Source of the DNA: Spirosoma panaciterrae DSM 21099
GTDB taxonomy: Bacteria; Bacteroidota; Bacteroidia; Cytophagales; Spirosomataceae
NCBI RefSeq assembly: GCF_000374025.1
Contig: NZ_KB893182.1
Coordinates: forward strand, 1 to 64,000
Direction of reading: 5' to 3'
DNA: 64,000 bases
In this document: positions 2,648 to 19,479 of the stretch, one piece after another
Layout: the number at the start of each line of letters is the position of its first letter
Numbering within the stretch: position 1 is the first letter of the stretch
Made by a program: the position numbers and the translations under genes
Notes under the pieces: model-generated
What the model saw: only the letters and a program-made list of their open reading frames with translations
Database searches by the model: none
Told to the model about the DNA's origin: nothing

Positions 2648-2692
2648 GCTCCCGAAGCTGGGCTCGAACCAGCGACCCTCTGATTAACAGTC
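2648..2692 (-). repeat. left attachment site: 45-bp fragment of tRNA-Asn 3' part
   Basis: Identical over 45 bp to 19396-19440. It carries the 3' part of tRNA-Asn from the anticodon loop to the discriminator base, and diverges at 2693. The 5' half is absent, so it is not a functional tRNA. It is the displaced remnant left when the element integrated. Identity ending in the anticodon stem-loop fits a crossover there, as is common for tyrosine integrases. Confidence 0.95.
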
Positions 2693-2818: not shown

Positions 2819-2864
2819 TTGTATTGCAAGTTGTATTGCAACTTATGGCCAACTTGCAATACAA
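2819..2864. promoter_or_regulatory. left-end integrase arm-type sites overlapping the integrase start
   Basis: Three copies of an 11-bp unit are present: TTGTATTGCAA at 2819-2829 and 2831-2841 in direct orientation, and its reverse complement at 2854-2864. They end one base before the integrase ATG at 2866. Two further copies lie near the other end (19324-19346). Recurrence at both ends is what is expected for arm-type binding sites of integrase or excisionase. The overlap with the gene start suggests autoregulation. Confidence 0.7.
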
Positions 2865-2865
2865 T

Positions 2866-4275
2866 ATGAGCAGAGCAACCGTAAACCTTTTCTTTGACAA
2901 ACGAGCCAGCAAAGACGGGCAAGGTGTAATAAAATGGCTTGTCTGCCTTGATCGTAAGCAACGGCTTTTTAGTACTGGGCGTAAGATTTTACTGTCTGAA
3001 TGGGATTTCCTACAGACTAATAAAAATAAGCTGGATAACCGAATCAAGGATGAGGGTAAAATACGGCTCTGGCATGAGTTTTACGGTGAAACGTTTAGGG
3101 ATGAGTTAACAGGTAAAACGCAAACAAGCTACCTGAAACGGGCGCAAATTGTCATCGGTCAGTTAGTAGATCATTTCACGTTCGATGCATTTGCCGAAAC
3201 TATTGCCAACTATGGCAAAGAGCCAGAGAGACCCGCCGAACAAACCGACCTCATTGCAGCACTATTAGCGAAAGCTGACAGTATGAGTAGTGCCGGGCGT
3301 ATCGGTAATGCCATTAATTACGAATTAGCCGCAAAGTCACTACGTCGGTTTGTGGATTCGTTCACAGATGAGGAACGAAAAGAGTTTTTAAACTTACCTC
3401 TCCCTCGTCGATTTAGCCAACCCCGCCCAGTTGCCGTATTGTATTTTGAGCATCTTACATCGAACTTTCTGACAACTTATGAGCACTGGATGCAACATTA
3501 TGGCAAAGCCCCACAGAGCAAGCTAAAGGCCGCAACAGGGGCGAGCTTGACCACCGTAGGAATTTACCTACGGCACGTGCGGGCCGTTGTCAATGATGCA
3601 ATAGAAGCTGGATTAATGAGTCGGGATAATTACCCGTTCGGACGTAATCGGTATGTGATACCCGCTGGAGCCAACGTTAAGAAAGCCCTGCCCAAATCCG
3701 ATATTGACAAGCTGAAAGCCTACCAACCCATAACTGGTACGACGGAGCAACGGAGCCATGATTTATGGCTATTTTCCTACTTCTGCAACGGAGCCAATCT
3801 CACTGACATTTGTCGCTTGACGTGGGGCCGGGTTGACCTCAAAGACGGTAAACTAACCTTTGTTCGGCAGAAGACAGCTAGGAGTAAAAAACATAGCCAA
3901 ACTCCTATAGTAGCACATCTACGGCCCGAAACCCTCGCCATTATTGAGCGATGGGGAACTGCCGACCGACGCGCCAGTAACTTCGTTTTCCCATTCCTCA
4001 ATGCTGATATGAATGAACGGCAAAGGAAACAGGCAGTACATCAGATAGTGAAAATGACGAATAAATGGATGGGCAAAATTGCCGAACAGTTAGGTATAGT
4101 AGGTGATGTAAACACTTACTCGGCTCGACACTCGTTTGCAACCAGTTTACTTAAGAGTAAAGCTCCACTTGCTTTCATTTCCAAGTCGTTAGGGCATACT
4201 AATCTCAAAACGACGGAAAGCTATCTAGGATCATTCGATGATGAAGAAGCAAAATCATTTTTAAATGCTCTTTAA
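2866..4275 (+). CDS. tyrosine-type site-specific integrase
   Basis: A phage-integrase-type tyrosine recombinase of 469 residues, expected to integrate and excise the element at tRNA-Asn. An N-terminal arm-binding region (MSRATVNLFFDKRASKDG) and a core-binding helical domain precede the C-terminal catalytic domain. The visible catalytic elements are Arg421 in YSARHSFAT, His in SLGHTNLKTTESYLG and nucleophile Tyr453. The usual first Arg (in a CRG/TGAR motif) appears as Asn308 in FCNGANLTD, and the usual His of HxxR is Tyr. I chose ATG 2866 (MSRATVN) because conserved sequence begins there; ATG 2845 and TTG 2824 are in frame but overlap the repeat sites. The gene is the first next to the left attachment site and reads inward. 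Confidence 0.93.
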   Translation: MSRATVNLFFDKRASKDGQGVIKWLVCLDRKQRLFSTGRKILLSEWDFLQTNKNKLDNRIKDEGKIRLWHEFYGETFRDELTGKTQTSYLKRAQIVIGQLVDHFTFDAFAETIANYGKEPERPAEQTDLIAALLAKADSMSSAGRIGNAINYELAAKSLRRFVDSFTDEERKEFLNLPLPRRFSQPRPVAVLYFEHLTSNFLTTYEHWMQHYGKAPQSKLKAATGASLTTVGIYLRHVRAVVNDAIEAGLMSRDNYPFGRNRYVIPAGANVKKALPKSDIDKLKAYQPITGTTEQRSHDLWLFSYFCNGANLTDICRLTWGRVDLKDGKLTFVRQKTARSKKHSQTPIVAHLRPETLAIIERWGTADRRASNFVFPFLNADMNERQRKQAVHQIVKMTNKWMGKIAEQLGIVGDVNTYSARHSFATSLLKSKAPLAFISKSLGHTNLKTTESYLGSFDDEEAKSFLNAL

Positions 4276-5384: not shown

Positions 5385-5402
5385 TTTCTTGGAAGCAGAA
5401 AT

Positions 5403-5441
5403 AGCCTGAACCTTGATTTATTGCGGTTGCAGGCTTTTTTA
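5403..5441 (+). terminator. rho-independent terminator
   Basis: AGCCTG-AACC (5403-5412) pairs with GGTTGCAGGCT (5425-5435) with one bulged base, followed by a run of six T. It would end transcription from the integrase/coiled-coil genes ahead of the HTH gene. Confidence 0.75.
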
Positions 5442-5469
5442 TTTGTGGTCGAACTCAAAGAAACAAGTT

Positions 5470-5775: not shown

Positions 5776-6098
5776 GCGCACTACAAGACATCCGCCAACT
5801 TGTTGACGCTCGCAAAACCGCACTAAAGCCCAACTTCCCAACTCGTTGTATACCTCGAAGCAAATACAACGATAAGGATGCAAATGTATTAACTCGTTGT
5901 GTTGTCGGCTACTTTAATCTATCTGGCTATTTTGCTACTAGACTACAACCAACTGAAACATACCATGAAGATATAAACTGGTATATACCCTCGCAGCAAG
6001 GTATAGGGTTACCTGATTTGTTATATATCGTCAATGGTTGTGCAGTAGTTGTTGAGATAAAGATCGGTAAAGATCGCCCGCCAGAAGTTCAAAAATAA
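5772..6098 (+). CDS. VRR-NUC-like nuclease fold protein, apparently truncated
   Basis: A 108-residue protein whose end, GLPDLLYIVNGCAVVVEIKI then GKDRPPEVQK, resembles the core of VRR-NUC/PD-(D/E)XK proteins common in phages and integrative elements: GxPD, hydrophobic strand, ExK, then a basic GKDR segment. Family members usually continue for another 25-40 residues after the EVQK point. Here a TAA stops the frame, although the same frame reads on as LARHINRLKPVF before losing similarity. The gene therefore may be a nonsense-truncated or decayed nuclease. Asp and Glu/Lys of the motif are retained. The start overlaps the HTH gene by 4 bp. Confidence 0.6.
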   Translation: MSALQDIRQLVDARKTALKPNFPTRCIPRSKYNDKDANVLTRCVVGYFNLSGYFATRLQPTETYHEDINWYIPSQQGIGLPDLLYIVNGCAVVVEIKIGKDRPPEVQK

Positions 6099-6275
6099 CT
6101 CGCAAGACACATAAATAGGTTGAAGCCAGTATTTAATCGCTCGTCCGTTTCAGGACTTCTGCGAATGGCCTACCGATTTTCGTGCATCGTATCCACGTCA
6201 GCCTTGTTTGCTTAAGCTATATGCAACAAAACGGGCTGATGCCCCTAGCATCAGCCCGTTCTAAATATTACCAAT
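6099..6275. other. intergenic stretch with a strong hairpin
   Basis: A perfect 13-bp inverted repeat (6230-6242 with 6248-6260, AACGGGCTGATGC) encloses a 5-nt loop and lies 16 bp before the RepA start. The T-run is poor on the plus strand and better on the minus strand (CCCGTTTTGTT). It may be an attenuator, a terminator or part of the RepA control region. Confidence 0.55.
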
Positions 6276-7367: not shown

Positions 7368-7370
7368 TCA

Positions 7371-7418
7371 AAGTTTCCAGAGTTTCCTGTACTATCAGTA
7401 TGGAAACTCTGGAAACTT
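7371..7418. repeat. 17-bp perfect inverted repeat with iteron-like units, candidate origin or operator
   Basis: AAGTTTCCAGAGTTTCC (7371-7387) and GGAAACTCTGGAAACTT (7402-7418) are perfect complements with a 14-nt spacer. Each arm holds two copies of GGAAACT spaced 9 bp apart, and GAAACTCTGGAAACAA recurs inside the next gene near 8184-8199. It lies between repA-like and primase-like genes, a typical place for a replication origin or autoregulatory site. No T-run follows on either strand, which argues against a simple terminator. Confidence 0.6.
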
Positions 7419-7443
7419 GGAACCTATTAAGAACTTGGCTTCT

Positions 7444-8682
7444 ATGAAATCCATATTAGACGTTACTGTGAGTTGTTTTGCAAACTTTAAAGCCGCTGGC
7501 AATCCACAACCCGTAAACCTGCTACAGTGGTTAAGATCGGATAAATATGCTAACCGAGTGGTCAATATCCGAACTATTGCCGATAAGAAGGAACGAGATG
7601 CGCTAAAGGCCACTTTACCGGCAATTACACCAAGTGGTCAGTTTACTTACCGTGAAGCATCGTCATTGGTACAACACAGTGGGCTAATCTGTCTTGATAT
7701 TGATTTTAAAGGAAATGAGCAAATCAGCAACTACAACTACTTGAAAAAAGAACTCAGCCACATTCGCAACGTAGCCTATTGCGGTCTATCAGTGAGTGGC
7801 ACAGGGTTATTTCTGCTGGTGCCTATTGCTTACCCTGAGCAGCATGTCAGTCAATTCAACGCCCTGCAACAACTGTTCAAAAGTCATTTTAGCGTTCGAA
7901 TAGATAATACACCCGATGTGGCTCGTTTGCGTGGCTACTCGTTCGATGCCGAGGGATATTATAATCACTATGCAACGCCCTTCACAGGCCTATACAAAGC
8001 ACCGGTAATAACGCGTCGTAGTGTACCTACTATTACAGCTAGCGATGCGGGCGAAATCTTATCTCATTGTATAAAGTTGGTCGAAACAGCCTCTGAAGGA
8101 CAACGACACCAACAACTATTAAAGGCAGCAAGATTGGCAGGTGGCTTTGTTGCGGGTGGTTTCATTGATGAGAACCTCGTTGTTGAAACTCTGGAAACAA
8201 TAGTGAGTAAGTGGCCGAACTTTACAAAATCTCGAAAAACGATTCGTGATGGACTCAGTAACGGTAAACAAAGCCCATTGCATATTGATGGATGGCGCTG
8301 CTCTCAACAGTATAGTACAGGGTATAAATCCGTAGTCGGCACCATAACCAAACAATATTCCAATTCAGGCAATATGCAACGAGTGTCAGCCGCTGAAGTC
8401 GATCTATCACCAGATATTAAAGCCGCCGAACACTCTGTCGGAAGTAACGAATACTTATCAGATATTGCGGCCACTTCAACTTACAATCAGGACGCATCAG
8501 TGGCACCTACACGAATTAAGGATCAGGTTAACCCGCCGATTCTGACTGACGATTTGCCACTGACAATGACTGAACTGGCGTTACAACGGATGAACCAGCG
8601 CAACCCAGCCTTACAAAGATTAGTTGAAACACTTGACTTGGTGGATAAAGAAACCGGGAGATCGATTCGATTTACAAACTAA
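7444..8682 (+). CDS. BT4734/VirE N-terminal domain protein (primase-like)
   Basis: A protein of 412 residues. Its first 200 residues match the BT4734/VirE-N domain frequent in Bacteroidota mobile elements: an N-terminal ADKKERDALKATLPAITPSG segment, then SGLICLDIDFKG with the acidic DxD pair, then LSVSGTGLFLLVPI, and RLRGYSFDAEGYYNHYA. This fold is related to archaeo-eukaryotic primases, and the DxD and SGxG motifs are compatible with an active site. Residues about 210-300 form a helical VirE-like region ending LHIDGWRCSQ. The remainder is low in motifs. I chose ATG 7444 (MKSILDVTVSCF); the TTG at 7417 overlaps the inverted repeat. The product probably works with the RepA ATPase in element replication. 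Confidence 0.75.
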   Translation: MKSILDVTVSCFANFKAAGNPQPVNLLQWLRSDKYANRVVNIRTIADKKERDALKATLPAITPSGQFTYREASSLVQHSGLICLDIDFKGNEQISNYNYLKKELSHIRNVAYCGLSVSGTGLFLLVPIAYPEQHVSQFNALQQLFKSHFSVRIDNTPDVARLRGYSFDAEGYYNHYATPFTGLYKAPVITRRSVPTITASDAGEILSHCIKLVETASEGQRHQQLLKAARLAGGFVAGGFIDENLVVETLETIVSKWPNFTKSRKTIRDGLSNGKQSPLHIDGWRCSQQYSTGYKSVVGTITKQYSNSGNMQRVSAAEVDLSPDIKAAEHSVGSNEYLSDIAATSTYNQDASVAPTRIKDQVNPPILTDDLPLTMTELALQRMNQRNPALQRLVETLDLVDKETGRSIRFTN

Positions 8683-8698
8683 AGACAGGTTATAAGCA

Positions 8699-9006
8699 GG
8701 TTATACTTCTACAATAATACGAGACGATATTTACCGGGATGGTCAAGAATATCAATTCAAGTAGGGGCAAAGTGGTAACTCAAAGGGGCGGCCGAAAGGA
8801 GTCGGAGATAAAGCTAAACTAATTCTGCAATGCTTGGACTCGGAACTGTTAACCAATCCATGTCTATTACAAGCACTCTTAGTTTAGAGGAGATGATTCC
8901 ATTAGCAATTATCCAGAAAGCGTTGAAAGGCAATACAGCTGCCTATAAAGCAAGTATTGATACAGCTTACGGTAAAAATCGAAAAGTCTATGAAGTCGAT
9001 GAATAA
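8699..9006 (+). pseudogene. broken DUF5681-type gene
   Basis: Frame-by-frame reading recovers one degraded protein. From 8699 the frame gives DGQEYQFK, a TAG stop at 8762-8764, then GQSGNSKGRPKGVGDKAKL, which is the diagnostic FKxGQSGNPxGRPKG signature of DUF5681 proteins. The frame continues LILQCLDSELLTNPCL, then a frameshift near 8860-8875 is needed to reach LEEMIPLAIIQKALKGNTAA and AYGKNRKVYEVDE, ending at 9004-9006. The DUF5681 family is usually found next to terminase small subunits. The tail overlaps the TerS-like start in ATGAATAA style, so the two were once coupled. At least one nonsense and one frameshift change make it a pseudogene unless the stop and shift are recoded. Confidence 0.65.
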
Positions 9007-9532
9007 AGGTAGTAAGCCAGAGCGTCGAAAGTATAATGGTCAGGAAACATTGGACTTGATTTACGAAGCTGTTTTTGCGGGTAAAACCAACAAAGAAATT
9101 GCTTCTTTACTACTGATTAATCCTGATACATTCTATGAATGGAAAAAAAATATACCCGATATATCCGAGACAATAAAAAGAGCCGAAGCTAATCATCGTG
9201 AAGAGATTCGAAATGCAGCTCGTATATCTCTGCTAAAACGAATTGAAGGGTATACTGTTGAAGACAGGCAAACTACGGAACGTCATGACAAAGATGGTAA
9301 TATTGTAGCTAAGACGACGAAAACGACCATCAGGTATATAATGCCTGACACAATGTTGCTCATGTTTGTATTGAACAATCTTGATAGTGAAAATTTTTCA
9401 AACAGCCAGAGAGTAAAAGTGCCTGAAGAGATTTCTGCTGGTGAAAGTATATTTTTAGAGGTAACGGAACAGGAAGCTGAATTAATCCGGCAGTTAAATG
9501 AATTAAACGGGCAAAACCTGACTTCGCTTTGA
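8990..9532 (+). CDS. terminase small-subunit-like HTH protein
   Basis: A protein of 180 residues. The N-terminal helix-turn-helix (EAVFAGKTNKEIASLLLINP then DTFYEWKKN) is followed by helical segments and a beta-rich part (VEDRQTTERHDKDGNIVAKT). This arrangement is seen in phage terminase small subunits and related phBC6A51-type proteins, which bind packaging sites on DNA. No large terminase gene is present, so the element cannot package itself alone. In phage satellites such as PICIs a lone TerS redirects helper phage packaging; that role here is inferred. I chose ATG 8990 because it overlaps the end of the upstream DUF5681 remnant; ATG 8999 is also possible. Confidence 0.65.
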   Translation: MKSMNKGSKPERRKYNGQETLDLIYEAVFAGKTNKEIASLLLINPDTFYEWKKNIPDISETIKRAEANHREEIRNAARISLLKRIEGYTVEDRQTTERHDKDGNIVAKTTKTTIRYIMPDTMLLMFVLNNLDSENFSNSQRVKVPEEISAGESIFLEVTEQEAELIRQLNELNGQNLTSL

Positions 9533-9809
9533 ACTGATATTATATTCCGTAAGAATATTACATTTGCAAAAACTTGAAATTATCGAATAAACAGCGGAAA
9601 CACTGACATATTGAATAGCGTTTAACGAAACTTCCTGCCGTCGAAATCTGGTAAATTTTATTGTGCAAGGGAGTGAGGTTGAACGCCCCGCGTCATGGCG
9701 TGGGGTGTTTGCTTCATTCTTGCATATAGGCTTACCAGAGCCTCGACGGCGGAATGAGTGCAGCCCCGCGCTATTTTTTTGTGTTGGTACAATTTACCCT
9801 CACAAGCTC
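9533..9809. other. intergenic region with a strong GC-rich hairpin
   Basis: A hairpin at 9683-9708 has a 10-bp stem (ACGCCCCGCG against CGTGGGGTGT, two G-T pairs) in an otherwise A/T-rich region. The next bases are GTTTGC, so termination is possible but weak. A second G/C-rich patch (9745-9770) precedes a run of seven T at 9774-9780. In-frame codons from 9663 exist but run through the hairpin and are probably not translated. Confidence 0.5.
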
Positions 9810-10268
9810 ATGAAAACATTTCTATGCCTTCTGATTACCATTGTTGTTAGTTCATCTAATTCAACTCAGGAACGATATAAGCTTAAGCCTAATACAACTG
9901 TAGAAGGTGCATTGAAAGAGTTTTGGTCAGGCCGGATAAAATTAGCCGAAGATCAACAGTCTAGTGATTTACAAGTGTTCTGGGCAAAGCATAAGGACGA
10001 AATCCTGAACAATATGGTTGTCGCAGATAAATATGTTTCTTCCAAGGGCGATCTATGCTTGGTTATGTATAGAATTACAGTTGGCGACAAGATATCTAGG
10101 AAGACACAATGGTTTCGTAAGCTAGATGATAACTGGGCAGCAAGTAATTTATATGCTTCTTCGCTTGACGATGATCCGTTACATGACGGGAAAGGTGAGT
10201 TAGTAAAAAAGTGGCTGGCCAAGGCTGAAGCTTGGGAGCAAGAAGATTCTTCTGAAGTGTGGTGGTAA
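9810..10268 (+). CDS. small exported protein of unknown function
   Basis: A protein of 152 residues starting MKTFLCLLITIVVSSSNSTQ, a short hydrophobic signal sequence. The mature part is charged (EGALKEFWSGRIKLAEDQQS, KHKDEILNNMVVADKY) and ends with an acidic, Trp-rich tail (AEAWEQEDSSEVWW). No catalytic motif or family is recognised. I chose ATG 9810 because the signal sequence starts there. It is the last rightward gene before the convergent defence operon, a place where satellites and islands carry cargo. Confidence 0.6.
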   Translation: MKTFLCLLITIVVSSSNSTQERYKLKPNTTVEGALKEFWSGRIKLAEDQQSSDLQVFWAKHKDEILNNMVVADKYVSSKGDLCLVMYRITVGDKISRKTQWFRKLDDNWAASNLYASSLDDDPLHDGKGELVKKWLAKAEAWEQEDSSEVWW

Positions 10269-10406
10269 ATGGAGTATTTAGCTATTTGAATTTTTAAAAT
10301 TGGTTAAGTACTAGCTACTACAGCTAAAAACAAGTAAGTAAATTGACCAAGGGGACACGAAATAAAATCTTCAAATACTCTCAGTATTAAGAGCAACTTT
10401 GGTATC

Positions 10407-11420
10407 TTATGTATAAACAGCAAGCCACTCTGGCTTATTCAGCATTTCCTGCAAAAATGAGGCTTTTAGAAACTTTCGATCATCATACCTATCTATGTTA
10501 TAATTTTCGATCTCATCGTTTAGAATCTCCTCGTAGGTAGCCCCATGTTTTCTCCTTGTGTTTCGATTGAATCTATTAGCCAGTGTCCTCAGTTCCGTTT
10601 TCGAAAATTGTCTAACTTCTTCATTGTAACGGGTTGTTATTTCAAACAGCCAGTCCCAGGTAGCAACCTTGTGAGAATCATTATTAAATGACATCGATAT
10701 TTCGTCTTGGCTAAGTTCTCCATAATTAGTTGCATCTGTATTATTAATAGTTATAACAATCTCAAACTCTTGATCCAATGCTTTAAAGGCATAAAATGAT
10801 TTTCGCCTATTCTCAAACGGATTCTTCGAGGATTTACACTTTTTATTACATTTACTACAGAGTGGAACAAGATTTGAGAAATTAACTGAGGCAAAAGGAT
10901 ATTCTGCTTTTGGGCCATAATGATCATTATCTTCTCTGTATCGTGACTCGGTACTTTCAACAGGAAGAATTCCACAGCAGGGACAAAATTTATAATTTGC
11001 CTTTTGATGTTCAATTAGCTTATTGTAATAGTCTAGCTTCTCCTTTGCGGTAATAAGATCACTGTAACACTTAATTAAAAAAGTTTTCATTTTTTTCTCT
11101 ACAACATCAGGTAATATATCGAGGCCAATAGGTTCTTTTTGTGCTTCGCATAATTCCTCGATATTATTATTTACAAAGAATGCTTCTTTGATGTCAGCCC
11201 GTTCTTCATCTGTTAATTTCTTACAGATTTCATAGATTTCATCAACAGCTGTCTTTACCCAATCGCGTTCCCAATAAATTTCTTCGAATTCATTACTAAG
11301 TAGGTCTGTACAAAGTATTTCATCTTGAGCTTGGCACCAGACCTCACAAATCAGATGTTGAAAATACTGCTGATAGACAAATACGGGATGTTCGTCCAAA
11401 GGCTTATAAGTTCTTAACAT
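10407..11420 (-). CDS. HNH endonuclease, last gene of the type I RM/ATPase/HNH operon
   Basis: A 337-residue protein with a zinc-supported HNH nuclease core in the middle. CPCC (Cys146, Cys149) starts the knuckle, DNDHYG places the catalytic His at 167, and NLVPLCSKCNKKC gives Asn183 and Cys188/Cys191/Cys195. The N-terminal 140 residues are helical (LTDEERADIKEAFF, KCYSDLITAKEKLDYYN) and the C-terminal 130 may be a partner-binding part. The start overlaps the ATPase stop by 17 bp, so expression is coupled. An ABC/OLD-type ATPase gene followed by an HNH gene is the layout of Septu (PtuA-PtuB) defence. Here the pair sits at the end of a type I restriction operon, and this HNH protein appears longer than a simple PtuB. 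Function in phage defence is inferred. Confidence 0.8.
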   Translation of the reverse strand: MLRTYKPLDEHPVFVYQQYFQHLICEVWCQAQDEILCTDLLSNEFEEIYWERDWVKTAVDEIYEICKKLTDEERADIKEAFFVNNNIEELCEAQKEPIGLDILPDVVEKKMKTFLIKCYSDLITAKEKLDYYNKLIEHQKANYKFCPCCGILPVESTESRYREDNDHYGPKAEYPFASVNFSNLVPLCSKCNKKCKSSKNPFENRRKSFYAFKALDQEFEIVITINNTDATNYGELSQDEISMSFNNDSHKVATWDWLFEITTRYNEEVRQFSKTELRTLANRFNRNTRRKHGATYEEILNDEIENYNIDRYDDRKFLKASFLQEMLNKPEWLAVYT

Positions 11421-13158
11421 CTGGTTCGCTCTTTAATTTTTTATTCAAACGGGATAATACTAAATCCTTTTCTATAGATTCTCCTAGCTTACGCAATTCT
11501 GCTTTAGCTTTTTCGATCTGAGCAACACCTTGAATCGAATCTATATCAAGAGCTTCAATTTGTGAAAACGATAAATCACCGATAGATTGCGTGTATCCAA
11601 ATAATCTGTCCAATATCAATTCCACAGAAGTGCCATAAGTATTAAAGGTATTTTCTAGCTCCGAAACCTTCATAGCTGTCGTTTTTCCCATACCATCTTT
11701 TTCAAACAGTATCACATTGTCGGGCAAACAATCTGAAATAATAAATGGCGAATGTGAGGTGAGTAATATATCCTTCAGTAAATGAACGTTGAAATTAACA
11801 AGAACAGAAGCTTCAGGACTTCCGGCAGAGATACTATCATTAAGTACTTTTACAAACTTGGCACGCCAGCTGGGGTTGAAATGTGTTTCAGGTTCATCTA
11901 ACAGTAGGATAGAACGCTTGTTTTTTAGCAGTAGGCAAATACCCATAGTGTGGATAAATTGGTGTTCTCCATCCGAAAAGCTACGCAAAAGTAAATCTTT
12001 CTTCTCTCCGGTTTTCTTTAATTCTTTAGTGATATAGAAGTCCAGAAAGTGGAAAACATCTTGCTGCGCACTACCCACCGGAAGTTTACCATCGGTGTAT
12101 ACTCCTTTGGAGCGATACACTTCTTCTTTTGCTTTTTCGTTCACAAAATGTGAATTCAGTTCATACAAAAGTCGAAAGCACTGAAAGCATTCAAAAGAAG
12201 TTTTGAAGTGCTTTTGGAATGCCTGTTTTGTGGCATCGTTTACAAAAAAGTCCAGCCATAAGGTTTTTTCTTTTTCATCGTAAAACAACGCAGTAGCACA
12301 TTTCTTCAGGCTATCCAACTGATGTTTTTCAATCAGTTTAAGAATGGATATATTTCTTTCTTTCCCTTTGTCATCTTTAAACACAAAATCGTGCAGGCGA
12401 ATATTCATCCGGAAGCTGCGAAGACCTAGGATACCTGTGTTATCTACATCTCGAAATGGTGCTAATGTATCTTCCTTTTCAAATAATAAACACGATAATA
12501 ATACCGCCTGACTCATGTTGCTGTCGATGTAAATCAGACTGTTCTCTGGTTCATCGTAACGCTCATAATTATCACGCGTAGCTTGGCGGTATTCATCCAG
12601 ATGGATAAGACGACTTTTGATGAAAGGCAAGCTCAAGATTTCATTCTCACCAGAAGAGTAACCCACGATATGTTGTGGTAGGTACTGCTTGCCTTCCGCT
12701 GCCTCTTGTTTGTTAATGGAAGGTAATAAGGAAACTCTCCTTACCTCTACCGTATCATCGAACGGATAAGGCTGAATAAACAATTGCGGTTCTTCGCTTT
12801 CTTTTTTTATTATAGTGACTTTTTCGAAAGAATGAACAGCATAAGCATTATTATTCTGCTGGCCAATCAGATATTCCAATGTAAATGCATCAGGAGTGCA
12901 TTTAGCACGTTCGAAGTTACCTGGATCTTTTATGCTTTCTGGTAGATAACGGGCTACACAAAGCTCCAAGTGAAAAAAAATATTGGCCAACGCTTCCAAC
13001 ACATTCGACTTGCCGCTGCCATTTAAGCCCGCGAAACAAAATGGGCGAAACTGCTTCATAGACTCCGTATCTTCAAGTGTATGGAACTTGATCTCAAAGC
13101 CTTTTTGTAGGCTCCGGAAACCTTCGTTGTTTTCTATCTTGAGCCTAAGGAGTTTCAT
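11404..13158 (-). CDS. restriction-associated AAA/ABC-type ATPase
   Basis: A 584-residue SMC/OLD-like ATPase. Walker A GLNGSGKS is at residues 44-51, the ABC signature-like SFSDGEHQ at 393-400, and Walker B with catalytic Glu (LLLDEPETHF) at about 418-427. A switch His lies in LLTSHSPF near 469. The insert between (about 60-390) is long and lacks an SMC hinge or TOPRIM domain, so it is not an OLD nuclease by itself. It matches the family annotated as restriction-system-associated AAA ATPase. The ATG at 13158 overlaps the hsdS stop by 4 bp, and its own end overlaps the HNH gene. It probably senses infection or DNA ends and activates the HNH partner, as PtuA does; this is inference. Confidence 0.85.
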   Translation of the reverse strand: MKLLRLKIENNEGFRSLQKGFEIKFHTLEDTESMKQFRPFCFAGLNGSGKSNVLEALANIFFHLELCVARYLPESIKDPGNFERAKCTPDAFTLEYLIGQQNNNAYAVHSFEKVTIIKKESEEPQLFIQPYPFDDTVEVRRVSLLPSINKQEAAEGKQYLPQHIVGYSSGENEILSLPFIKSRLIHLDEYRQATRDNYERYDEPENSLIYIDSNMSQAVLLSCLLFEKEDTLAPFRDVDNTGILGLRSFRMNIRLHDFVFKDDKGKERNISILKLIEKHQLDSLKKCATALFYDEKEKTLWLDFFVNDATKQAFQKHFKTSFECFQCFRLLYELNSHFVNEKAKEEVYRSKGVYTDGKLPVGSAQQDVFHFLDFYITKELKKTGEKKDLLLRSFSDGEHQFIHTMGICLLLKNKRSILLLDEPETHFNPSWRAKFVKVLNDSISAGSPEASVLVNFNVHLLKDILLTSHSPFIISDCLPDNVILFEKDGMGKTTAMKVSELENTFNTYGTSVELILDRLFGYTQSIGDLSFSQIEALDIDSIQGVAQIEKAKAELRKLGESIEKDLVLSRLNKKLKSEPDVKNL

Positions 13159-14546
13159 GCAACGACAAGATTAACACTTTTGGTTAGTTCATCAAATACC
13201 TGTTGCACTTTGCCTTCTTTCAATAGTTCGAATACGAAGTTCTTAGCTTTATCGTAGATGACAGTATCGTAAAGCCTCTTGTCATTCAATTCATTTTTAT
13301 CAAGCCGATCTATGAGTAATTGAATAGCTGTTTCGCTGCTATTTTGCTTGAAAAATTCGTAATCATTTTCAAGTAATACTTCAAGATCTACGGCTGTGTT
13401 AAAAGTTAATTCGCCTGCAAAAGCAAGTTGGGCGATGTTGATATTCAGATTCCTTATATAATTTAAATTTACTTCTAGCGATTTTTTTATTGATTCTATC
13501 TTTAAAGCAATTTTAGCAAACTTTATTTGTAGGACTTCCGGAGGGAGATATACAGGAAACTTTTTCAGCTGAGTTGAATTTATTGAAGCAATGCCTGTTG
13601 TTTGCTTCGCGGACTTTAAAAAGTAACTTTTTCCGTATGCACTCGATGTTTGATAAGACAAGAAGACAGGATTTAATTTTTCTTTATCCTTAATCCTAAC
13701 ACGAAAAATGTGATTTTGAAAAATGCAATCTTCAATTTCGTTTTTCCATAGTGATCCTCTTCCTAGTTTATCAGGATCACCTCCCTCGGTTAATAATAAG
13801 TCATCCACCTGCAGATTATAACGAGCTATTTCTTCTTCCGTAGCTTCAATCTCTTTAATCTCAGATAAATCAAGATAGCCATCCTGAACGTTAGCAACGC
13901 GCATGTAAGGTGCATAGACCGTAGTTTTGTTAGAGTAGTCTTTGCCCTTAGTTATACCAGAAGTTACGTCTGCGATATCTGATAAATTGATTACATCTTT
14001 ACCTTCATACTCCCCAAACATTTTCCAAAAAGTACTTCTCAGTAATTCGTCATATTTAAGAATGGTTTCGATTCGCTTATACAGAATAGCTTTTGACTTA
14101 TCTAAGATTGCTACAATTTTGTTTTGTGTCTCGAAATCAGGAAGATTTACTTCAAAGTCTTTTATATCACTTACAGAGACATTTTTGATTGTTGCACTTT
14201 TTGCTTTGTTAATTATTTCCTCAATAGAATGTGCTATTTTATAATATATCCAATCAATATTGACACCAGCTTTGGGCTCTATCTTGACAATTCTTTGATT
14301 TAACAAAGCTGAATTTCCATGCCATTTGTAGATTTTAATTGTCCCTGATAGGCTTAAAAGAATGTCGCCTTTATTTATGATGTATTTTTTGTCGTAGTCT
14401 AGATTCCAATAAACAAAGTCATTAGCATGAAGATCAAGGTTATTTATTCTAATTATTGGAATACCTTGCTCAGAAAAATCGTTTGACTTCCAAGCATTGC
14501 CCGATATAAAGGTGCAAATCTGATTTAACTTTACTCTCTCCATCAC
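13155..14546 (-). CDS. hsdS: type I restriction-modification specificity subunit HsdS
   Basis: A 463-residue HsdS that sets the DNA sequence recognised by the methylase and restriction complex. Two target-recognition domains are visible: the first starts VKLNQICTFISGNAWKSNDF, and the second starts INLSDIADVTSGITKGKDYS. Each is followed by a conserved helix (FETQNKIVAILDKSKAILYK and LKIESIKKSLEVNLNYI). The usual end motif LAFAGEL is at about 373-380, yet the protein continues for some 83 more residues (LEVLLENDYEFFKQ to VQQVFDELTKSVNLVVA), an unusual tail. Both ends overlap neighbours by 4 bp (HsdM and ATPase), so subunits are made in step. Target sequence cannot be predicted. Confidence 0.9.
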   Translation of the reverse strand: MMERVKLNQICTFISGNAWKSNDFSEQGIPIIRINNLDLHANDFVYWNLDYDKKYIINKGDILLSLSGTIKIYKWHGNSALLNQRIVKIEPKAGVNIDWIYYKIAHSIEEIINKAKSATIKNVSVSDIKDFEVNLPDFETQNKIVAILDKSKAILYKRIETILKYDELLRSTFWKMFGEYEGKDVINLSDIADVTSGITKGKDYSNKTTVYAPYMRVANVQDGYLDLSEIKEIEATEEEIARYNLQVDDLLLTEGGDPDKLGRGSLWKNEIEDCIFQNHIFRVRIKDKEKLNPVFLSYQTSSAYGKSYFLKSAKQTTGIASINSTQLKKFPVYLPPEVLQIKFAKIALKIESIKKSLEVNLNYIRNLNINIAQLAFAGELTFNTAVDLEVLLENDYEFFKQNSSETAIQLLIDRLDKNELNDKRLYDTVIYDKAKNFVFELLKEGKVQQVFDELTKSVNLVVA

Positions 14547-16156
14547 CCAATTAAAATTTTAAGCTCATCCATATCTTTTTTAATTTCTTTTTCCAATTCT
14601 ATTAATGCATCCAATATTTTTTGTGGCGGCTCGTAAGCTTGCTCTTGATACTCGAATTTTTTGTAGCGATTGTAGCTCAAGTCTAACCCATTGTCTTTTA
14701 TCTCGGCTAAGGGTACATAAAAATGATTGGAGCGCTCAATCGGTGTTTGCATGGCTCGTTGCTTATATATATCGACTGCTATCGGTAAGGGATTTACTGC
14801 TAGCTTCCTGCGGTTGTCATCAAGGCTATAGCCATCGTTCTTCAATTCATAGAACCAGACTTTTTCAGTATGCCAAGTGGTGCTGCCTTCTTCTGCCTTC
14901 GTAAATACCAGAATGGCAGTTTTTACTCCTGTGTAGGGCTTAAATGCTCCGCTAGGTAAGGAGATTATTGCCTCGAGTTGGTTGTCTCTCAATAATACCT
15001 CACGTGTTTGTTTTTGATTTTTGCTTCCCCCAAATAACACACCTTCTGGAATGATTACCGCAGCCTTACCACCAGGACGAAGCATTTTTGAAATTCGGAT
15101 GAGAAACAACAGCTCACTTTGTGTACCATTAATCTTTAGCTTGTCGCTCATACCTCCTTTATCGATACGTCCTGTAAAAGGCGGATTTGCCATCACAACA
15201 GAGTATTCACCGTCTGGGTATTCCTGATCGTACTTTTTGGAAAGCGTATCCACATTTTCAATCTGTGGTATCTTAATGCCATGTAGCATTAGGTTCATCA
15301 AACCAATCCGCACCATAGTCTGATCCATATCAAAACCAAAGAAGGCTTTTTCGTTTAGATGATCCCAAACGTCTTGTCTCGTAATCAAATCGCCTCCGTA
15401 CTTCTTAAAACGTTTCAGTCCGTTCTCATCTAGCACAATTTCCTCTGGACTGCTGTGTTTGGTGAGAATATGCTGATAAGCACCTAGCAAAAAACCGCCA
15501 GTCCCGCATGCAGGGTCGCAAATTGTGTCTGTCCAATCTGGGTCAATTATCTCGCACATGAATTGAATCAGGTGGCGAGGTGTACGAAACTGACCATTTT
15601 TACCTGATTGGCTGAGTTCTTTTAATAGGTATTCGTACACATCGCCCTGCGTGTCCTGAAACTGTTGTCCTTTGTTTTGTTGTTTTTTTATCTCTTCAAA
15701 TATTTCATCAATTGCACTTACTGCTTCATCCAGCAACGCAGAATTGTTGATAATGAAGAATGCATTTTTCATGTGACGTGCGTATGGCTGCGAAGGATCA
15801 TTTAGATCCTTTATAAAAGGAAATGCCTTCTTCGAAACTGTTTCGAGCATATTATCAGGATCAAGATTTCTAAACTGAGACCAACGGCAATCGTCAGCGT
15901 TTTCATAAACAGGATTCTTATCTTTATCCAAAATAGGTTTTCCATCTTCACCCAGTTTCGGCCGGACAAACAATGTTTTGTATTCAGCACCGGTAAATTC
16001 CGCTATAGTCTTAGCATTTGTATCTGCATCGTCAATCCTCCGCATAAAAAGCAGATAAGAGATTTGCTCAATAGCTGTGACAGGATTCGTGATTCCACGG
16101 CTCCAGAACTTATCCCAAAGATTATTAATCTTCGTTTTTAATTCGTTTGATAACAT
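14543..16156 (-). CDS. hsdM: type I restriction-modification DNA methyltransferase HsdM
   Basis: A 537-residue adenine-N6 methyltransferase subunit. The N-terminal helical domain (TKINNLWDKFWSRGITNPVT) is followed by the SAM-binding motif DPACGTGGF at residues 214-222 and the catalytic NPPF at 324-327. The C-terminal part carries KPYTGVKTAILVF and the tail helices that contact HsdS. The length is normal for HsdM. It is the second gene of the operon, starting 19 bp after hsdR and overlapping hsdS by 4 bp. With two HsdM and one HsdS it forms the protective methylase; with HsdR it forms the restriction complex. Confidence 0.96.
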   Translation of the reverse strand: MLSNELKTKINNLWDKFWSRGITNPVTAIEQISYLLFMRRIDDADTNAKTIAEFTGAEYKTLFVRPKLGEDGKPILDKDKNPVYENADDCRWSQFRNLDPDNMLETVSKKAFPFIKDLNDPSQPYARHMKNAFFIINNSALLDEAVSAIDEIFEEIKKQQNKGQQFQDTQGDVYEYLLKELSQSGKNGQFRTPRHLIQFMCEIIDPDWTDTICDPACGTGGFLLGAYQHILTKHSSPEEIVLDENGLKRFKKYGGDLITRQDVWDHLNEKAFFGFDMDQTMVRIGLMNLMLHGIKIPQIENVDTLSKKYDQEYPDGEYSVVMANPPFTGRIDKGGMSDKLKINGTQSELLFLIRISKMLRPGGKAAVIIPEGVLFGGSKNQKQTREVLLRDNQLEAIISLPSGAFKPYTGVKTAILVFTKAEEGSTTWHTEKVWFYELKNDGYSLDDNRRKLAVNPLPIAVDIYKQRAMQTPIERSNHFYVPLAEIKDNGLDLSYNRYKKFEYQEQAYEPPQKILDALIELEKEIKKDMDELKILIG

Positions 16157-16175
16157 TTTTACTTTCCGATTTTAA

Positions 16176-18986
16176 TTATGCTGCTATTCGATGAATAACG
16201 CCAATAATTTCTTCTATTTCCCTTGGCGAAAACATGCCTAGAATCCCCTGTGGATGTAACTGAGTAAAAGGCGGATTTATCAAGTCTTTCTTCTGCGCTG
16301 TTCCTTTATCAATCAAATACTTCTGCAGCAATTTCACGAATTCGATCTGGTTGTTGGTTAGATTGTTGTGCTGCTGAATGAATACATTGAATGCTGTAGT
16401 GACGGTTTCTTCAAAAGTATGAATAGGCTCTACCTGCAGAATGTGGCGGATGAACTGTAGGAATTTTGCATGCTGGTTTCCATACACACGTTGCAGTAGT
16501 TTTTCAGTCACGAATGGATCACGTTTATTCATCAATTGTGCCAACGCATCTATCTCATGCTCTGTAATGGCCTCACCAGATTTTATTTTCTGCAATACCA
16601 AATGGGTTTTTGCTAACTGTTGAACCATATTTTCCACCATTTCTTTGTAGCGGCTTACGCTCACTAATTCATTTTCAGGGCCAAACTCAATCATTTCTTT
16701 TTTGTAGGTAACATCCTGCAGATTGAGGCTCGCCTGTTCATCACCCCAATCAAAGCGCTGACGGTAGCGCATAAGGGGGGCTATTTTTTCAATCGCTTGT
16801 TTGAGATCCTCTTCAGAAGTGTTAGTCCAGAAACTGTTTTTTAAAGCACGTTGAACAAGCTCTTTTTCCTTTGCTACTACACCTATGTTCAAGGGTAATT
16901 CTGCTATTTGGGTAACGATAAGTTCACGAAGGTTTTCTATTGCCTGTTCATCGGTTTTCAACTGAGCAATAGAAAATTCCACTATGTCCTTCTCAAAACG
17001 CATAGCTTTAAAATCTAGCGATGAAAGCGCTCTTAGCAAGGGAGCAATGGTTTGATCCAGAAATTGAATCTTATCGTCATTGAGATGTTCCCAGAAAGCG
17101 GGATCTGCTACTATTTGCAAGTGCGTGGCATTATCTAGTACCAGCACATTGTTTTGGGGAAGTGCATTAATAAGTTTTTCTAATTCAAACTTCTCTGACT
17201 GCGCAATATCGGAATTTCTTTCACGCGCGAGCTTTAGTTTTTCCAGCCGCATTTTGAAAAGTCGCACAGGTAGTGCAAGCTGAGATTTGTTCTCTTTTCC
17301 TTTCGGCTTAAGTTTAAAGTATTCAAAATTGTCCCAGCAATCTATGATGAGGAACTTATCCTTTTCATGGCACCAGCTTCTTCGGTCTTTTTTATCTAGT
17401 ACGCGTGTACCTCTTCCAATCATCTGCCAGAATTTGGTGTAGGAAAAGATAGGTTTGGCAAATACAAGGTTCACCAACTGCGGAATGTCGATGCCTGTAT
17501 CGAGCATGTCCACACTGATCGCGACTCGTGGGAGGTCGTTATTTTTGAACTGATCCAGCAATCCACCTTTGCCATACACGCGAGGATCATCCGATACAAT
17601 CACTTTAGCAATTTCACCTGCACCCTGCGGATAGAACTGATCGAAAATTTCTTTAATCCTTCTTGCATGGGTCATGGTCATACAGAAAAAAATAGTCTTT
17701 CCTGGCAATACTCCATTGGGATCTTTAATACATTCCTCCCAAAATTCACGAACAATCAGCGCATTCGTTCCTTTGTTAGTGACTGTCTTTTCAATATCAG
17801 TTCCTTCAAAGTTAATTTCAGCCGGGTCTTTATTTTCAACCATCAGCTTGTGTTGATCTTCTTCGCTGATAGTATGAATATGTATACCCTCCTGCTGAAA
17901 TTTAGTGGTTAGCTTCATCACCTCGAAGTTAGAGAGATATGGTGGTTTGTTGTTTACCGCATCTTCGAATGTATATGCAAAAGTGGGAAGGCCATCCTCA
18001 CAGTCGAAAAGCTGAAAGGTATTGTGGTCAACAGTCTCAGTAGGTGTTGCGGTTAGGCCAAGCACAGCCGAGTCAAAGTAGCTTAGTATATTTTGGTACA
18101 CATTGTAGATCGAGCGATGGCTTTCATCAATAATAATCAGATCAAAAAAGTGTGGTGACAAACTTTCCTTTTCACCCTCGATGATATTCAGTATTGTTGG
18201 GTATGTAGACACGTAAACACGTCTGTCTGTGGTTAATTTCGCTTCACCCGTTTGTGGCCATACAGAATATTGCGGTACATATTCTTTGAACGCTTCCACA
18301 GCTTGGTCCCGTAATGCAATTCTATCTACCAGAAATAATACCCTTGAAATCCATCCTGCTCGCATCAGCCCATCGATCATCGCAATACAAGTTCTGGTTT
18401 TGCCAGTTCCTGTTGCCATGGTAAGGAGGAATTTTCTTTTCTTTTGTTCTATGGCTTCAAACACTGCACGGATAGCTTGTATTTGATATGTTCTACCTGC
18501 AATACCAACATTAATCAATTCATTCGCAAGCGGTTTTCTGTTTTTGCGAATAAATGCCATACGTTCAAGATCGGAGCGGGTTGGAAAGGCATGGATCTTT
18601 CGGGGTGAATAATTTCCTAAATCCCAGAGCCAGATGTCATTTCCATTAGTATACATACAAAACGGAAGCTCGCTGTTGAATTGCTTCTGGATGTTATAAG
18701 CATATTGCTTGGCTTGCTCTTCACCTACACGAGCATCTTTAGTAGATCTCTTTGCCTCCACAACGGCCAAAGGCTTACTGTCTTTACCGAGCAAAACATA
18801 ATCACTGAATTCGGAACTGTACTTTATTAATAGCTCATCAACAGCACTTGCATTACTAGAAATATAAAACTCTTCAATTACCTGAGTACGGTCAACAACA
18901 TTCCATCCTGCTTTTTTCAAATTCAGATCGATTTGCCTTCGCGTAAGTTTTTCGGGTTCCATTTCTATATTCAGACTATTGATCAC
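16176..18986 (-). CDS. hsdR: type I restriction-modification endonuclease/translocase HsdR
   Basis: A 936-residue motor and nuclease subunit. The N-terminal PD-(D/E)XK nuclease is visible as Asp62 and Glu77-x-Lys79 (FSDYVLL ... AVVEAKR). Helicase motifs follow: Walker A ATGTGKT at 191-197, DESH at 287-290, GLTATPTETVDHNTF soon after, and a QMIGRGTRVLDKKDRR motif VI. The length and motifs match EcoEI/EcoR124-like HsdR proteins, and no internal stop or frameshift is visible. It is the first gene of the five-gene operon. The promoter must be between 18987 and 19200; a CAACATTTG sequence near 19025-19033 on the minus strand is a weak candidate -7 box. Confidence 0.96.
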   Translation of the reverse strand: MINSLNIEMEPEKLTRRQIDLNLKKAGWNVVDRTQVIEEFYISSNASAVDELLIKYSSEFSDYVLLGKDSKPLAVVEAKRSTKDARVGEEQAKQYAYNIQKQFNSELPFCMYTNGNDIWLWDLGNYSPRKIHAFPTRSDLERMAFIRKNRKPLANELINVGIAGRTYQIQAIRAVFEAIEQKKRKFLLTMATGTGKTRTCIAMIDGLMRAGWISRVLFLVDRIALRDQAVEAFKEYVPQYSVWPQTGEAKLTTDRRVYVSTYPTILNIIEGEKESLSPHFFDLIIIDESHRSIYNVYQNILSYFDSAVLGLTATPTETVDHNTFQLFDCEDGLPTFAYTFEDAVNNKPPYLSNFEVMKLTTKFQQEGIHIHTISEEDQHKLMVENKDPAEINFEGTDIEKTVTNKGTNALIVREFWEECIKDPNGVLPGKTIFFCMTMTHARRIKEIFDQFYPQGAGEIAKVIVSDDPRVYGKGGLLDQFKNNDLPRVAISVDMLDTGIDIPQLVNLVFAKPIFSYTKFWQMIGRGTRVLDKKDRRSWCHEKDKFLIIDCWDNFEYFKLKPKGKENKSQLALPVRLFKMRLEKLKLARERNSDIAQSEKFELEKLINALPQNNVLVLDNATHLQIVADPAFWEHLNDDKIQFLDQTIAPLLRALSSLDFKAMRFEKDIVEFSIAQLKTDEQAIENLRELIVTQIAELPLNIGVVAKEKELVQRALKNSFWTNTSEEDLKQAIEKIAPLMRYRQRFDWGDEQASLNLQDVTYKKEMIEFGPENELVSVSRYKEMVENMVQQLAKTHLVLQKIKSGEAITEHEIDALAQLMNKRDPFVTEKLLQRVYGNQHAKFLQFIRHILQVEPIHTFEETVTTAFNVFIQQHNNLTNNQIEFVKLLQKYLIDKGTAQKKDLINPPFTQLHPQGILGMFSPREIEEIIGVIHRIAA

Positions 18987-19214
18987 CTAGAAAAAGATTT
19001 ACTTCCCTTTGTATACTCTAGAGCAAATGTTGTTCAAGTTTATTTTTGTCAAGGTACACTGAATTTTAAGGCCAACAAATGATTCAATGCTTCAAATAAT
19101 TACCTATTTTCTCCGGCCCTCAGAAGGGGTACAACGCACGAAAATGAGAAGCGAGAATCTAAAGCCCGTTTTAGTATGCCAAAATTTCATTTTACCAACT
19201 AGTTAAAACAAAAT
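18987..19214. other. upstream region of the defence operon
   Basis: No gene is visible. The region is A/T-rich, has no strong repeat and should contain the hsdR promoter. Its sequence is distinct from the chromosomal DNA right of the tRNA. Confidence 0.4.
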
Positions 19215-19250
19215 AAAAAAGCACTTATCGTTATTGGTAAGTGCTTTTTT
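19215..19250. terminator. symmetrical hairpin terminator near the right end of the element
   Basis: AAAAAAGCACTTA (19215-19227) pairs perfectly with TAAGTGCTTTTTT (19238-19250) around a 10-nt loop, giving T-runs on both strands. It insulates the defence operon promoter region from tRNA-Asn read-through. The same AAGCACTTA stem recurs at 19358 and after tRNA-Val at 62279. Confidence 0.85.
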
Positions 19251-19323
19251 AAGTTAGGAGTTGATGAAGTTCAACCAACGATCCGCCGTCTGTAAGGCAA
19301 TTGCACCATATTAACCAATAAGA

Positions 19324-19346
19324 ATGTATTGCAAGTTGTATTGCAA
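19324..19346. promoter_or_regulatory. right-end integrase arm-type sites
   Basis: ATGTATTGCAA (19324-19334) and TTGTATTGCAA (19336-19346) are tandem copies of the 11-bp unit found three times at 2819-2864, with a single mismatch in one copy. The 22-bp block TGTATTGCAAG-TTGTATTGCAA is the same at both ends. They are probably integrase or excisionase binding arms of the right attachment site. Confidence 0.7.
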
Positions 19347-19353
19347 TGAACAT

Positions 19354-19385
19354 AAAAAAGCACTTACCATTTATGATAAGTGCTT
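19354..19385 (-). terminator. element-borne terminator of tRNA-Asn
   Basis: AAGCACTTA (19358-19366) and TAAGTGCTT (19377-19385) form a 9-bp stem followed on the minus strand by TTTTTTATG. It lies 11 bp beyond the 3' end of the restored tRNA-Asn and replaces the original terminator now stranded at 2613. Confidence 0.8.
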
Positions 19386-19395
19386 GATTTACAGG

Positions 19396-19440
19396 GCTCC
19401 CGAAGCTGGGCTCGAACCAGCGACCCTCTGATTAACAGTC
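19396..19440 (-). repeat. right attachment site: 45-bp direct repeat inside tRNA-Asn
   Basis: Identical to 2648-2692. It forms the 3' part of the intact tRNA-Asn, which means the element brought a copy of the tRNA 3' end and restored the gene on integration. The shared sequence ends within the anticodon stem at 19440. Confidence 0.95.
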
Positions 19441-19470
19441 AGATGCTCTAACCGACTGAGCTATTCGGGA
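19397..19470 (-). tRNA. tRNA-Asn (anticodon GTT)
   Basis: A 74-nt cloverleaf. The acceptor stem is TCCCGAA/TTCGGGA with G as discriminator. The D arm is GCTCAGTCGGTTAGAGC, the anticodon stem TCTGA/TCAGA with loop CTGTTAA, and the T arm contains GGTTCGAGCC. CCA is not encoded. The gene serves as the attachment site of the element to its left and is intact because the element carries the missing 3' half. Confidence 0.97.
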
Positions 19471-19479
19471 ATTGTGGTG

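What the first reader, a model, noticed from the sequence alone, without database searches (positions are those of the whole stretch)
10407..18986. Five-gene coupled operon: type I restriction-modification plus ATPase/HNH pair
Seen directly: hsdR, hsdM, hsdS, an ABC/OLD-type ATPase gene and an HNH nuclease gene are on one strand with a 19-bp gap and then overlaps of 4, 4 and 17 bp. Known: type I R-M and Septu (PtuA ATPase with PtuB HNH) are separate defence systems, and a restriction-associated AAA ATPase family exists. Inferred: the tight coupling suggests one integrated machine, for example restriction fragments or R-M failure triggering the ATPase/HNH effector. The extended HsdS and the large HNH protein support co-adaptation.
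Basis: partly seen in the sequence, partly recalled or inferred. Interest (0 to 1): 0.8.

Follow-up and report, generated by a model that had tools for sequence, protein, structure and literature searches.

The report
Type I restriction operon with built-in effector
A mobile stretch of bacterial DNA carries a classic virus-cutting enzyme genetically welded to a second, Septu-like nuclease pair, and comparison with relatives suggests that the enzyme's DNA-recognition subunit has grown a special tail that may hold that second weapon.

Summary
The ATPase is NCBIfam TIGR04435, 'restriction system-associated AAA family ATPase', so the link to restriction is already curated; ATPase and HNH look most like Septu PtuA/PtuB. 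The linkage is not accidental: in 25 loci with an intact ATPase (window included; four phyla) hsdS precedes and an HNH gene follows in 25 of 25. In phylum samples of 390-395 genomes the ATPase, the long HNH and a C-terminal HsdS extension occur in the same 8 genomes. New here: the extension was not found on other HsdS of those genomes; hsdR is optional (absent beside hsdM in 6 of 22 decidable loci); the ATPase C-terminus swaps together with the HNH. Best reading: HsdMS is a platform holding a PtuAB-type second effector, analogous to PrrC on EcoprrI; the unit is a four-gene core plus optional hsdR. Docking, trigger and substrate are unproven; no structure could be computed. New variant of a known kind.

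The parts
16176..18986 (-). hsdR, EcoEI/EcoAI-type restriction subunit, 936 aa; nuclease and helicase motifs intact; optional component across relatives
   Evidence: motifs; optional:
14543..16156 (-). hsdM, N6-adenine methyltransferase, 537 aa, NPPF motif
13155..14546 (-). hsdS, specificity subunit, 463 aa, two target-recognition domains plus C-terminal extension
13155..13406 (-). C-terminal extension of HsdS (residues 381-463), the suggested dock for the ATPase; profile A3
11404..13158 (-). ABC-type ATPase, TIGR04435, PtuA-like, 584 aa; Walker A GLNGSGKS, Walker B ILLLDEPE
11404..11673 (-). ATPase C-terminal segment (residues 496-584), exchanged together with the HNH among relatives
10407..11420 (-). 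HNH nuclease of a long PtuB-like type, 337 aa
10845..10985 (-). zinc-HNH core CxxC...DH...N...CxxCN (C146, C149, D166, H167, N183, C188, C191, N192)
2648..2692 (.). left attachment-like repeat: 45-bp exact copy of part of tRNA-Asn
19396..19440 (.). right attachment-like repeat inside tRNA-Asn (19394-19471, minus strand)
2824..4275 (+). tyrosine-recombinase integrase (483 aa, TTG start) just inside the left repeat; Phage_integrase PF00589, 56.9 bits, cut-off 27.1

Best explanation
The operon encodes one machine with two weapons. HsdM-HsdS methylates and reads a DNA site; HsdR, where present, is the usual translocating nuclease. The C-terminal extension of HsdS docks the core of a PtuA-like ATPase onto the methyltransferase, and the ATPase C-terminal segment holds the HNH nuclease. 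At rest the HsdMS platform keeps the ATPase/HNH pair silent; when HsdMS meets unmodified invading DNA, or is bound by an anti-restriction protein, the ATPase changes state and the HNH cuts, most likely as a back-up or growth-arrest effector, as PrrC does on EcoprrI. Shown here: gene order and its conservation, presence of the extension on these HsdS and not on the others examined, co-variation of extension with ATPase core and of HNH with ATPase C-terminus, hsdR-free forms. Inferred: docking, silencing, trigger, substrate.
For: The same 8 genomes hold TIGR04435 over cut-off (8 of 395), the long HNH at E<=1e-30 (8 of 395) and the HsdS extension at E<1e-15 (8 of 390, next hit E 0.007), as neighbours. 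In 25 intact loci hsdS precedes and HNH follows 25 of 25 (hsdS split in L135, cut by the contig end in L077); hsdM in 23 of 23 where the contig reaches it. 27 other HsdS ORFs of those 8 genomes (my count) gave no hit; 15 of them, tested directly, gave none at E<=10 while 7 of 7 cassette loci did. A profile built without the window's clade still finds the window's tail (E 1e-10) and its five clade mates (E 4e-11 to 6e-6). 107 of 107 database proteins found with the extension carry PF01420 (only proteins of similar length are candidates). Pairwise-identity correlations: extension-ATPase core 0.81, against extension-HsdM 0.65, extension-ATPase C-terminus 0.61, extension-HNH 0.59; HNH-ATPase C-terminus 0.88 against HNH-ATPase core 0.73; HsdS TRDs with anything -0.00 to 0.31; bootstrap ranges of the differences lie above zero for Pearson r. 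L075: HsdR 79%, HsdM 83%, ATPase core 74% identical to the window, ATPase C-terminus 31%, HNH 29%. ATPases with the other C-terminus: 0 of 31 share a contig length with the listed window-type HNH clusters, against 31 of 74. Fewest changes of hsdR presence on the HsdM tree: 4. HNH D-H-N kept 25 of 25, Walker A 25 of 25. PrrC precedent: passages of PMC12707154 and PMC11555353.
Against: No experiment, structure or complex model. The extension profile used was built on 17 rows that include all 8 genomes; rows not used found it too (L140 6e-23, L139 8e-19, L135 6e-16, L132 1e-12, L133 5e-6), but L134 and L138 show none and L078, L136, L137 only weak likeness. By rank correlation the part-specific pattern is weaker: HNH-ATPase C-terminus 0.77 against 0.74 for core and HsdM; outside the window's clade extension-core 0.64, extension-HsdM 0.62, extension-ATPase C-terminus 0.67. 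Such correlations also rise when genes simply travel together. Kovacikia (L135) has hsdS in two ORFs yet intact ATPase and HNH, and G666 (L080) keeps an HNH beside an ATPase fragment without recognisable hsdS; a strict 'HsdMS is the antitoxin' model does not predict the first. Other PtuA/PtuB-like pairs lie without recognised hsd genes (L081, L082).
Confidence: 0.5

Rival explanations
1. Methylation-guided DNA restriction: ATPase/HNH is an alternative or additional DNA-cutting arm recruited by HsdMS to unmodified DNA, taking the place of HsdR, and is not a suicide effector.
For: hsdR is not beside the core in L032, L072, L073, L078, L136, L138. Flavobacterium sp. KJJ (G770) shows only weak matches to the window's HsdR (best E 1.6e-6) and its six ResIII-domain ORFs at E<=1e-10 are at most 819 aa. 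Septu PtuAB of E. coli ATCC25922 is reported to act on nicked DNA (PMC11555353 passages).
Against: In 16 of 22 decidable loci hsdR is kept with intact motifs, so a second DNA cutter would be redundant there. Two characterised PtuAB pairs cut tRNA-Tyr (passages of PMC11555353 and PMC13096335).
Confidence: 0.3
2. Hitch-hiking: an ordinary Septu-like pair that merely shares a promoter and a mobile island with a type I system.
For: Defence genes cluster (general knowledge); the cassette lies in a 16.8-kb tRNA-Asn island; PtuA/PtuB-like pairs without recognised hsd genes exist (L081, L082).
Against: 25 of 25 fixed order; HsdS extension found only on these HsdS; correlations specific to parts of proteins; same arrangement in named members of four phyla.
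Confidence: 0.12
3. Toxin-antitoxin-like stabiliser: HsdMS restrains ATPase/HNH so that loss of the island kills the cell; phage defence is secondary.
For: Mobile settings: tRNA island, plasmids, viral contigs.
Against: A locus with split hsdS but intact ATPase/HNH (L135); toxicity untested.
Confidence: 0.08

Closest known systems
PrrC with EcoprrI (and PrrC170)
   Same: ABC-ATPase effector encoded inside a type I R-M operon, activated when the R-M enzyme is inhibited (PMC12707154 passages; hsdR, hsdS, prrC and hsdM cloned together in PMC11555353 passages)
   Different: PrrC is a single chain with its own anticodon-nuclease part (recalled); here two proteins, ATPase plus HNH, an HsdS tail, and optional hsdR
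Septu (PtuA/PtuB) and retron Ec78/Eco7 PtuAB
   Same: ABC ATPase gene followed by HNH gene; best PADLOC models are PtuA and the Septu-like PDC-M01B (PMC11811056 passages treat PDC-M01/M62 calls as duplicates of Septu)
   Different: the sensor here would be HsdMS, not a retron; longer HNH; far below the PtuA equivalog cut-off, and the PtuB equivalog NF041761 is not matched at E<=1
TIGR04435 restriction system-associated AAA ATPase
   Same: the window ATPase is a member, 627.6 bits
   Different: the family name tells neither the HNH partner, the HsdS extension nor the optional hsdR
ABC-ATPase-anchored R-M-like systems (Krishnan et al. 2020, cited in PMC12839542)
   Same: ABC ATPases coupled to HNH and other nucleases in R-M-like loci, as the citing passage says
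   Different: the 2020 paper is not held, so whether this exact layout is in it could not be checked
PARIS (AriA/AriB)
   Same: ABC ATPase that detects an anti-restriction protein (PMC12707154 passages)
   Different: Toprim nuclease partner (PMC12839542 passage); not tied to an hsdMS operon there
MADS
   Same: methyltransferase, S-like subunit and AAA ATPase in one system (family names in NCBIfam)
   Different: window scores: MAD3 13.2 of 420, MAD2 120.4 of 720, MAD5 33.7 of 400

Membership tests
Type I R-M | HsdR with nuclease and helicase motifs, HsdM with NPPF, HsdS with two TRDs | tested here: met
Type I R-M | methylation and restriction activity | not testable with these tools
   needs methylome and plating assays
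TIGR04435 | score over curated cut-off 300 | tested here: met
   627.6 bits
Septu / PtuAB | ATPase gene directly followed by HNH gene | tested here: met
   25 of 25 loci
Septu / PtuAB | PtuA equivalog NF041760 (cut-off 500); HNH subfamily TIGR02646 (cut-off 52.15); PtuB equivalog NF041761 | tested here: not met
   23.9 bits, 16.3 bits, no match at E<=1
Septu / PtuAB | stand-alone two-gene system or retron-linked | tested here: not met
   behind hsdS in 25 of 25 loci
PrrC | ATPase effector inside a type I operon | tested here: met
PrrC | single chain with ABC and anticodon-nuclease parts (recalled) | tested here: not met
   two ORFs, nuclease is HNH
PrrC | silenced by the R-M complex, activated by its inhibition, cuts tRNA-Lys | not testable with these tools
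   -
PARIS | Toprim nuclease partner | tested here: not met
   partner is HNH
MADS | MAD3/MAD2/MAD5 scores over cut-off | tested here: not met

The most novel reading that the evidence does not exclude
HsdS has evolved a dedicated adaptor domain that turns the type I methyltransferase into the sensor of a PtuAB-type effector; in the hsdR-free four-gene form this is a restriction system in its own right, in which an HsdMS-tethered ATPase/HNH replaces HsdR. Exchange of the ATPase C-terminus with the HNH makes the effector end a swappable cartridge.
Probability: 0.35. Interest if true: 0.8.

Novelty: new variant of a known kind. Interest (0 to 1): 0.57.

Why it matters
Type I R-M enzymes are among the first known bacterial immune enzymes. 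If HsdMS doubles as the sensor of a Septu-type effector, it would explain how some bacteria punish phages that block restriction, name a physical link (the HsdS tail) that can be cut and tested, and show that HsdR need not be the only output of a type I specificity complex. It would also answer, for one branch of PtuAB-like pairs, what the sensor is.

Tried and rejected
OLD/Toprim reading of the ATPase: no Toprim hit; best models are TIGR04435 and PtuA. Membership in MADS or PARIS: models far below cut-off or wrong nuclease. Solved-structure relatives by sequence of ATPase, HNH and HsdS extension: none credible (the HNH hit to a designed repeat protein is read as spurious). Phage records: no match to the ATPase. 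Rows left out of the set of 25: L036 (genes in pieces), L080 (ATPase fragment), L133 (ATPase in two ORFs), L134 (98 bits to profile A1), L037 (23 bits), and the weak PtuA-like loci L081-L089 and L141-L144. In one search, 15 of 120 ATPases with other C-termini (6 of them sharing a contig length with an HNH cluster) were left out of the Fisher test. The genome searches score only the best candidates of a loose first look (3 per genome, 5, 13), so second, weaker copies in a genome can be missed.
Full report
Observation. The five ORFs, their order, the 19-bp gap and the 4, 4 and 17-bp overlaps are as stated. HsdR, HsdM and HsdS are recognised by Pfam and PADLOC. The ATPase is TIGR04435, 'restriction system-associated AAA family ATPase', 627.6 bits against a cut-off of 300. 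The HNH protein has no curated family over cut-off; its best PADLOC matches are the candidate models PDC-M01B and PDC-M62B and, weaker, PtuB. PMC11811056 (passages) treats PDC-M01 and PDC-M62 calls as duplicates of Septu.

Is the linkage accidental? In 395 genomes drawn across the phylum, TIGR04435 passes its cut-off in 8; the HNH profile reaches E<=1e-30 in 8 of 395 (the same draw by its handles); the HsdS-extension profile reaches E<1e-15 in 8 of 390. They are the same 8 genomes and the genes are neighbours. Further samples gave 8 of 390 genomes of the order, the window's included, and 2 of 398 of Ramlibacter's phylum. From these samples, genome contigs, plasmids and viral contigs come 25 loci with an intact ATPase ORF, the window included: hsdS precedes in 25 (in L135 split into two ORFs, in L077 cut by the contig end; in L078 and L138 shown by Pfam), an HNH ORF follows in 25, hsdM is present in 23 of 23 where the contig allows a verdict. 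In wider terms, 26 of 27 fetched loci have a long ORF within 150 bp upstream of the ATPase, 23 of the 26 overlapping it by the first possible start codon; the exception, L080, holds only an ATPase fragment. Named hosts are Bacteroidota, Ramlibacter and Sphingobium (Pseudomonadota), Priestia (Bacillota) and Kovacikia (Cyanobacteriota). No phage record matched the ATPase.

hsdR is optional. It stands upstream in 16 loci (with one inserted gene in L067 and L035; in L137 it is a different type, 28% identical), is absent beside the core in 6 (L032, L072, L073, L136, L138, and L078, where the gene upstream of hsdM is a glycine dehydrogenase), and cannot be judged in 3 at contig ends. Without L078, the HsdM tree needs at least 4 changes of this state. 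Flavobacterium sp. KJJ (L032) and G163 (L072) hold only weak helicase matches to the window's HsdR, and the one-contig genome G191 (L073) none. G191 and G163 do hold long ResIII ORFs, some beside other HsdS genes, so help in trans is not excluded there; KJJ has no ResIII ORF longer than 819 aa at E<=1e-10. The two plasmids with L136 and L138 have no ResIII match; their chromosomes were not searched. Where it is present, the cassette HsdR looks like a lineage of its own: on plasmids the Kovacikia cassette HsdR is 58.5% identical to the window's, the 34 other matches 43% or less, and none of those 34 records is among the 4 that match the ATPase.

The HsdS extension. Residues 381-463 lie beyond the best HsdS model. 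A profile of 17 such tails finds only the cassette HsdS at E<1e-15 in 390 genomes. Those 8 genomes carry 27 further HsdS ORFs by my count, fragments and fusions included. Fifteen of the 27 were held as loci and tested directly: none hit at E<=10, while 7 of 7 cassette loci hit. A profile built without the window and its five clade mates still finds all six (window E 1e-10). All 107 database hits of the tail carry PF01420 (only proteins of similar length are candidates). The full profile found tails in 22 of 27 HsdS, five of them not used to build it (L132, L133, L135, L139, L140). Of the other five, L078, L136 and L137 show weak likeness (E 3.4e-5, 2.5e-4, 1.5e-3; best of 35 shuffles 0.013), L134 and L138 none. 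What fold the tail has is unknown; a small winged-helix-like domain is my guess from the pattern.

Which parts go together? Identity matrices over up to 25 loci: HsdM-HsdR 0.95, ATPase core-HsdM 0.88, ATPase core-HsdR 0.87, extension-ATPase core 0.81, ATPase C-terminus-HNH 0.88. The target-recognition domains follow little (-0.00 to 0.31), as expected for parts that are exchanged. Bootstrap over 23 loci, Pearson r: the extension follows the ATPase core better than HsdM, HNH or ATPase C-terminus, and the HNH follows the ATPase C-terminus better than the ATPase core or HsdM (95% ranges above zero). By rank the contrast is smaller: HNH-ATPase C-terminus 0.77 against 0.74 and 0.74; and among the 19 loci outside the window's clade extension-core 0.64, extension-HsdM 0.62, extension-ATPase C-terminus 0.67. 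L075 shows one clear exchange: HsdR, HsdM, TRD2 and ATPase core are 74-83% like the window and the tail 60%, but TRD1 is 15%, ATPase C-terminus 31% and HNH 29%. Among the 120 listed ATPases (of 3932 found), 31 with the alternative C-terminus never share a contig length with the 120 listed (of 160) window-type HNH clusters; of 74 with the window-type C-terminus 31 do (Fisher p 2.7e-6); 15 with other C-termini were left out. Contig length is only a stand-in for neighbourhood and both lists are truncated.

Catalytic parts: Walker A in 25 of 25 ATPases; Walker B by a strict pattern in 22 of 25 (not L067, L078, L138); HsdR nuclease and helicase motifs in 16 of 16; NPP(F/Y) in 23 of 23 HsdM; HNH D-H-N in 25 of 25, one zinc cysteine missing in L078 and L137.

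A wider class. Five ATPases below the TIGR04435 cut-off also follow hsdM-hsdS (L084-L087, L089) and are followed by a shorter gene with PtuB or TIGR02646 likeness, over the TIGR02646 cut-off in L085 and L086 and below it in the other three. L081 and L082 are ATPase-HNH pairs without recognised hsd genes. No HsdS of these loci matches the tail profile. So the window's cassette seems to be one branch of a broader set of HsdMS-linked PtuAB-like pairs.

Mechanism. PMC12707154 calls PrrC and PARIS R-M guardian systems (passages). PrrC170 is cloned with hsdR, hsdS and hsdM and targets tRNA-Lys (PMC11555353 passages). PtuAB of retron Eco7 and of one E. coli Septu cut tRNA-Tyr (PMC11555353, PMC13096335 passages); another Septu is reported to act on nicked DNA. 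I therefore propose an HsdMS-held ATPase/HNH effector, released when HsdMS meets unmodified DNA or an inhibitor. Because hsdR is optional, products of the cognate HsdR are unlikely to be the general trigger. Whether the output is tRNA cleavage and growth arrest, or restriction of DNA, is open.

Setting. The cassette is the right end of a 16.8-kb island between 45-bp exact repeats at 2648-2692 and 19396-19440, the latter inside tRNA-Asn, with a phage-type integrase at 2824-4275. G+C per kb is 0.35-0.48 between 3 and 19 kb and mostly 0.46-0.55 beyond 20 kb.

Novelty. [quoted passage not shown] 2020 (reference seen), which is not held. My searches listed no title or abstract on the HsdS tail or on hsdR-free cassettes; they cover an open-licence library only and several listings were capped. 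Hence: new variant of a known kind.

Noticed in passing
window 2648-19440: Mobile island with 45-bp exact repeats at tRNA-Asn, a phage-type integrase and the defence cassette at its right end; a 22-bp repeat (2820-2841, 19325-19346) lies near both ends.
   Followed up: partly
L084-L087, L089: PtuA-like ATPases below the TIGR04435 cut-off also follow hsdM-hsdS and are followed by shorter PtuB-like genes: a broader class of HsdMS-linked pairs.
   Followed up: partly
L067:3424-4932; L035:6166-6981; L137:5710-7427: Extra genes inside the operon: Schlafen AlbA_2 and KilA-N proteins between hsdR and hsdM (Pfam); a hypothetical protein and an annotated GIY-YIG nuclease between hsdM and hsdS in L137.
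   Followed up: partly
L135:7257-8957: Kovacikia plasmid: hsdS is split into two ORFs while ATPase and HNH are intact.
   Followed up: no
L036:7299-12041: Niabella defluvii chromosome: the recognisable genes of the cassette are all in pieces.
   Followed up: no
window 632-2463: Two minus-strand ORFs (463 and 136 aa) just outside the left repeat in a 32-35% G+C stretch, possibly an older island.
   Followed up: no
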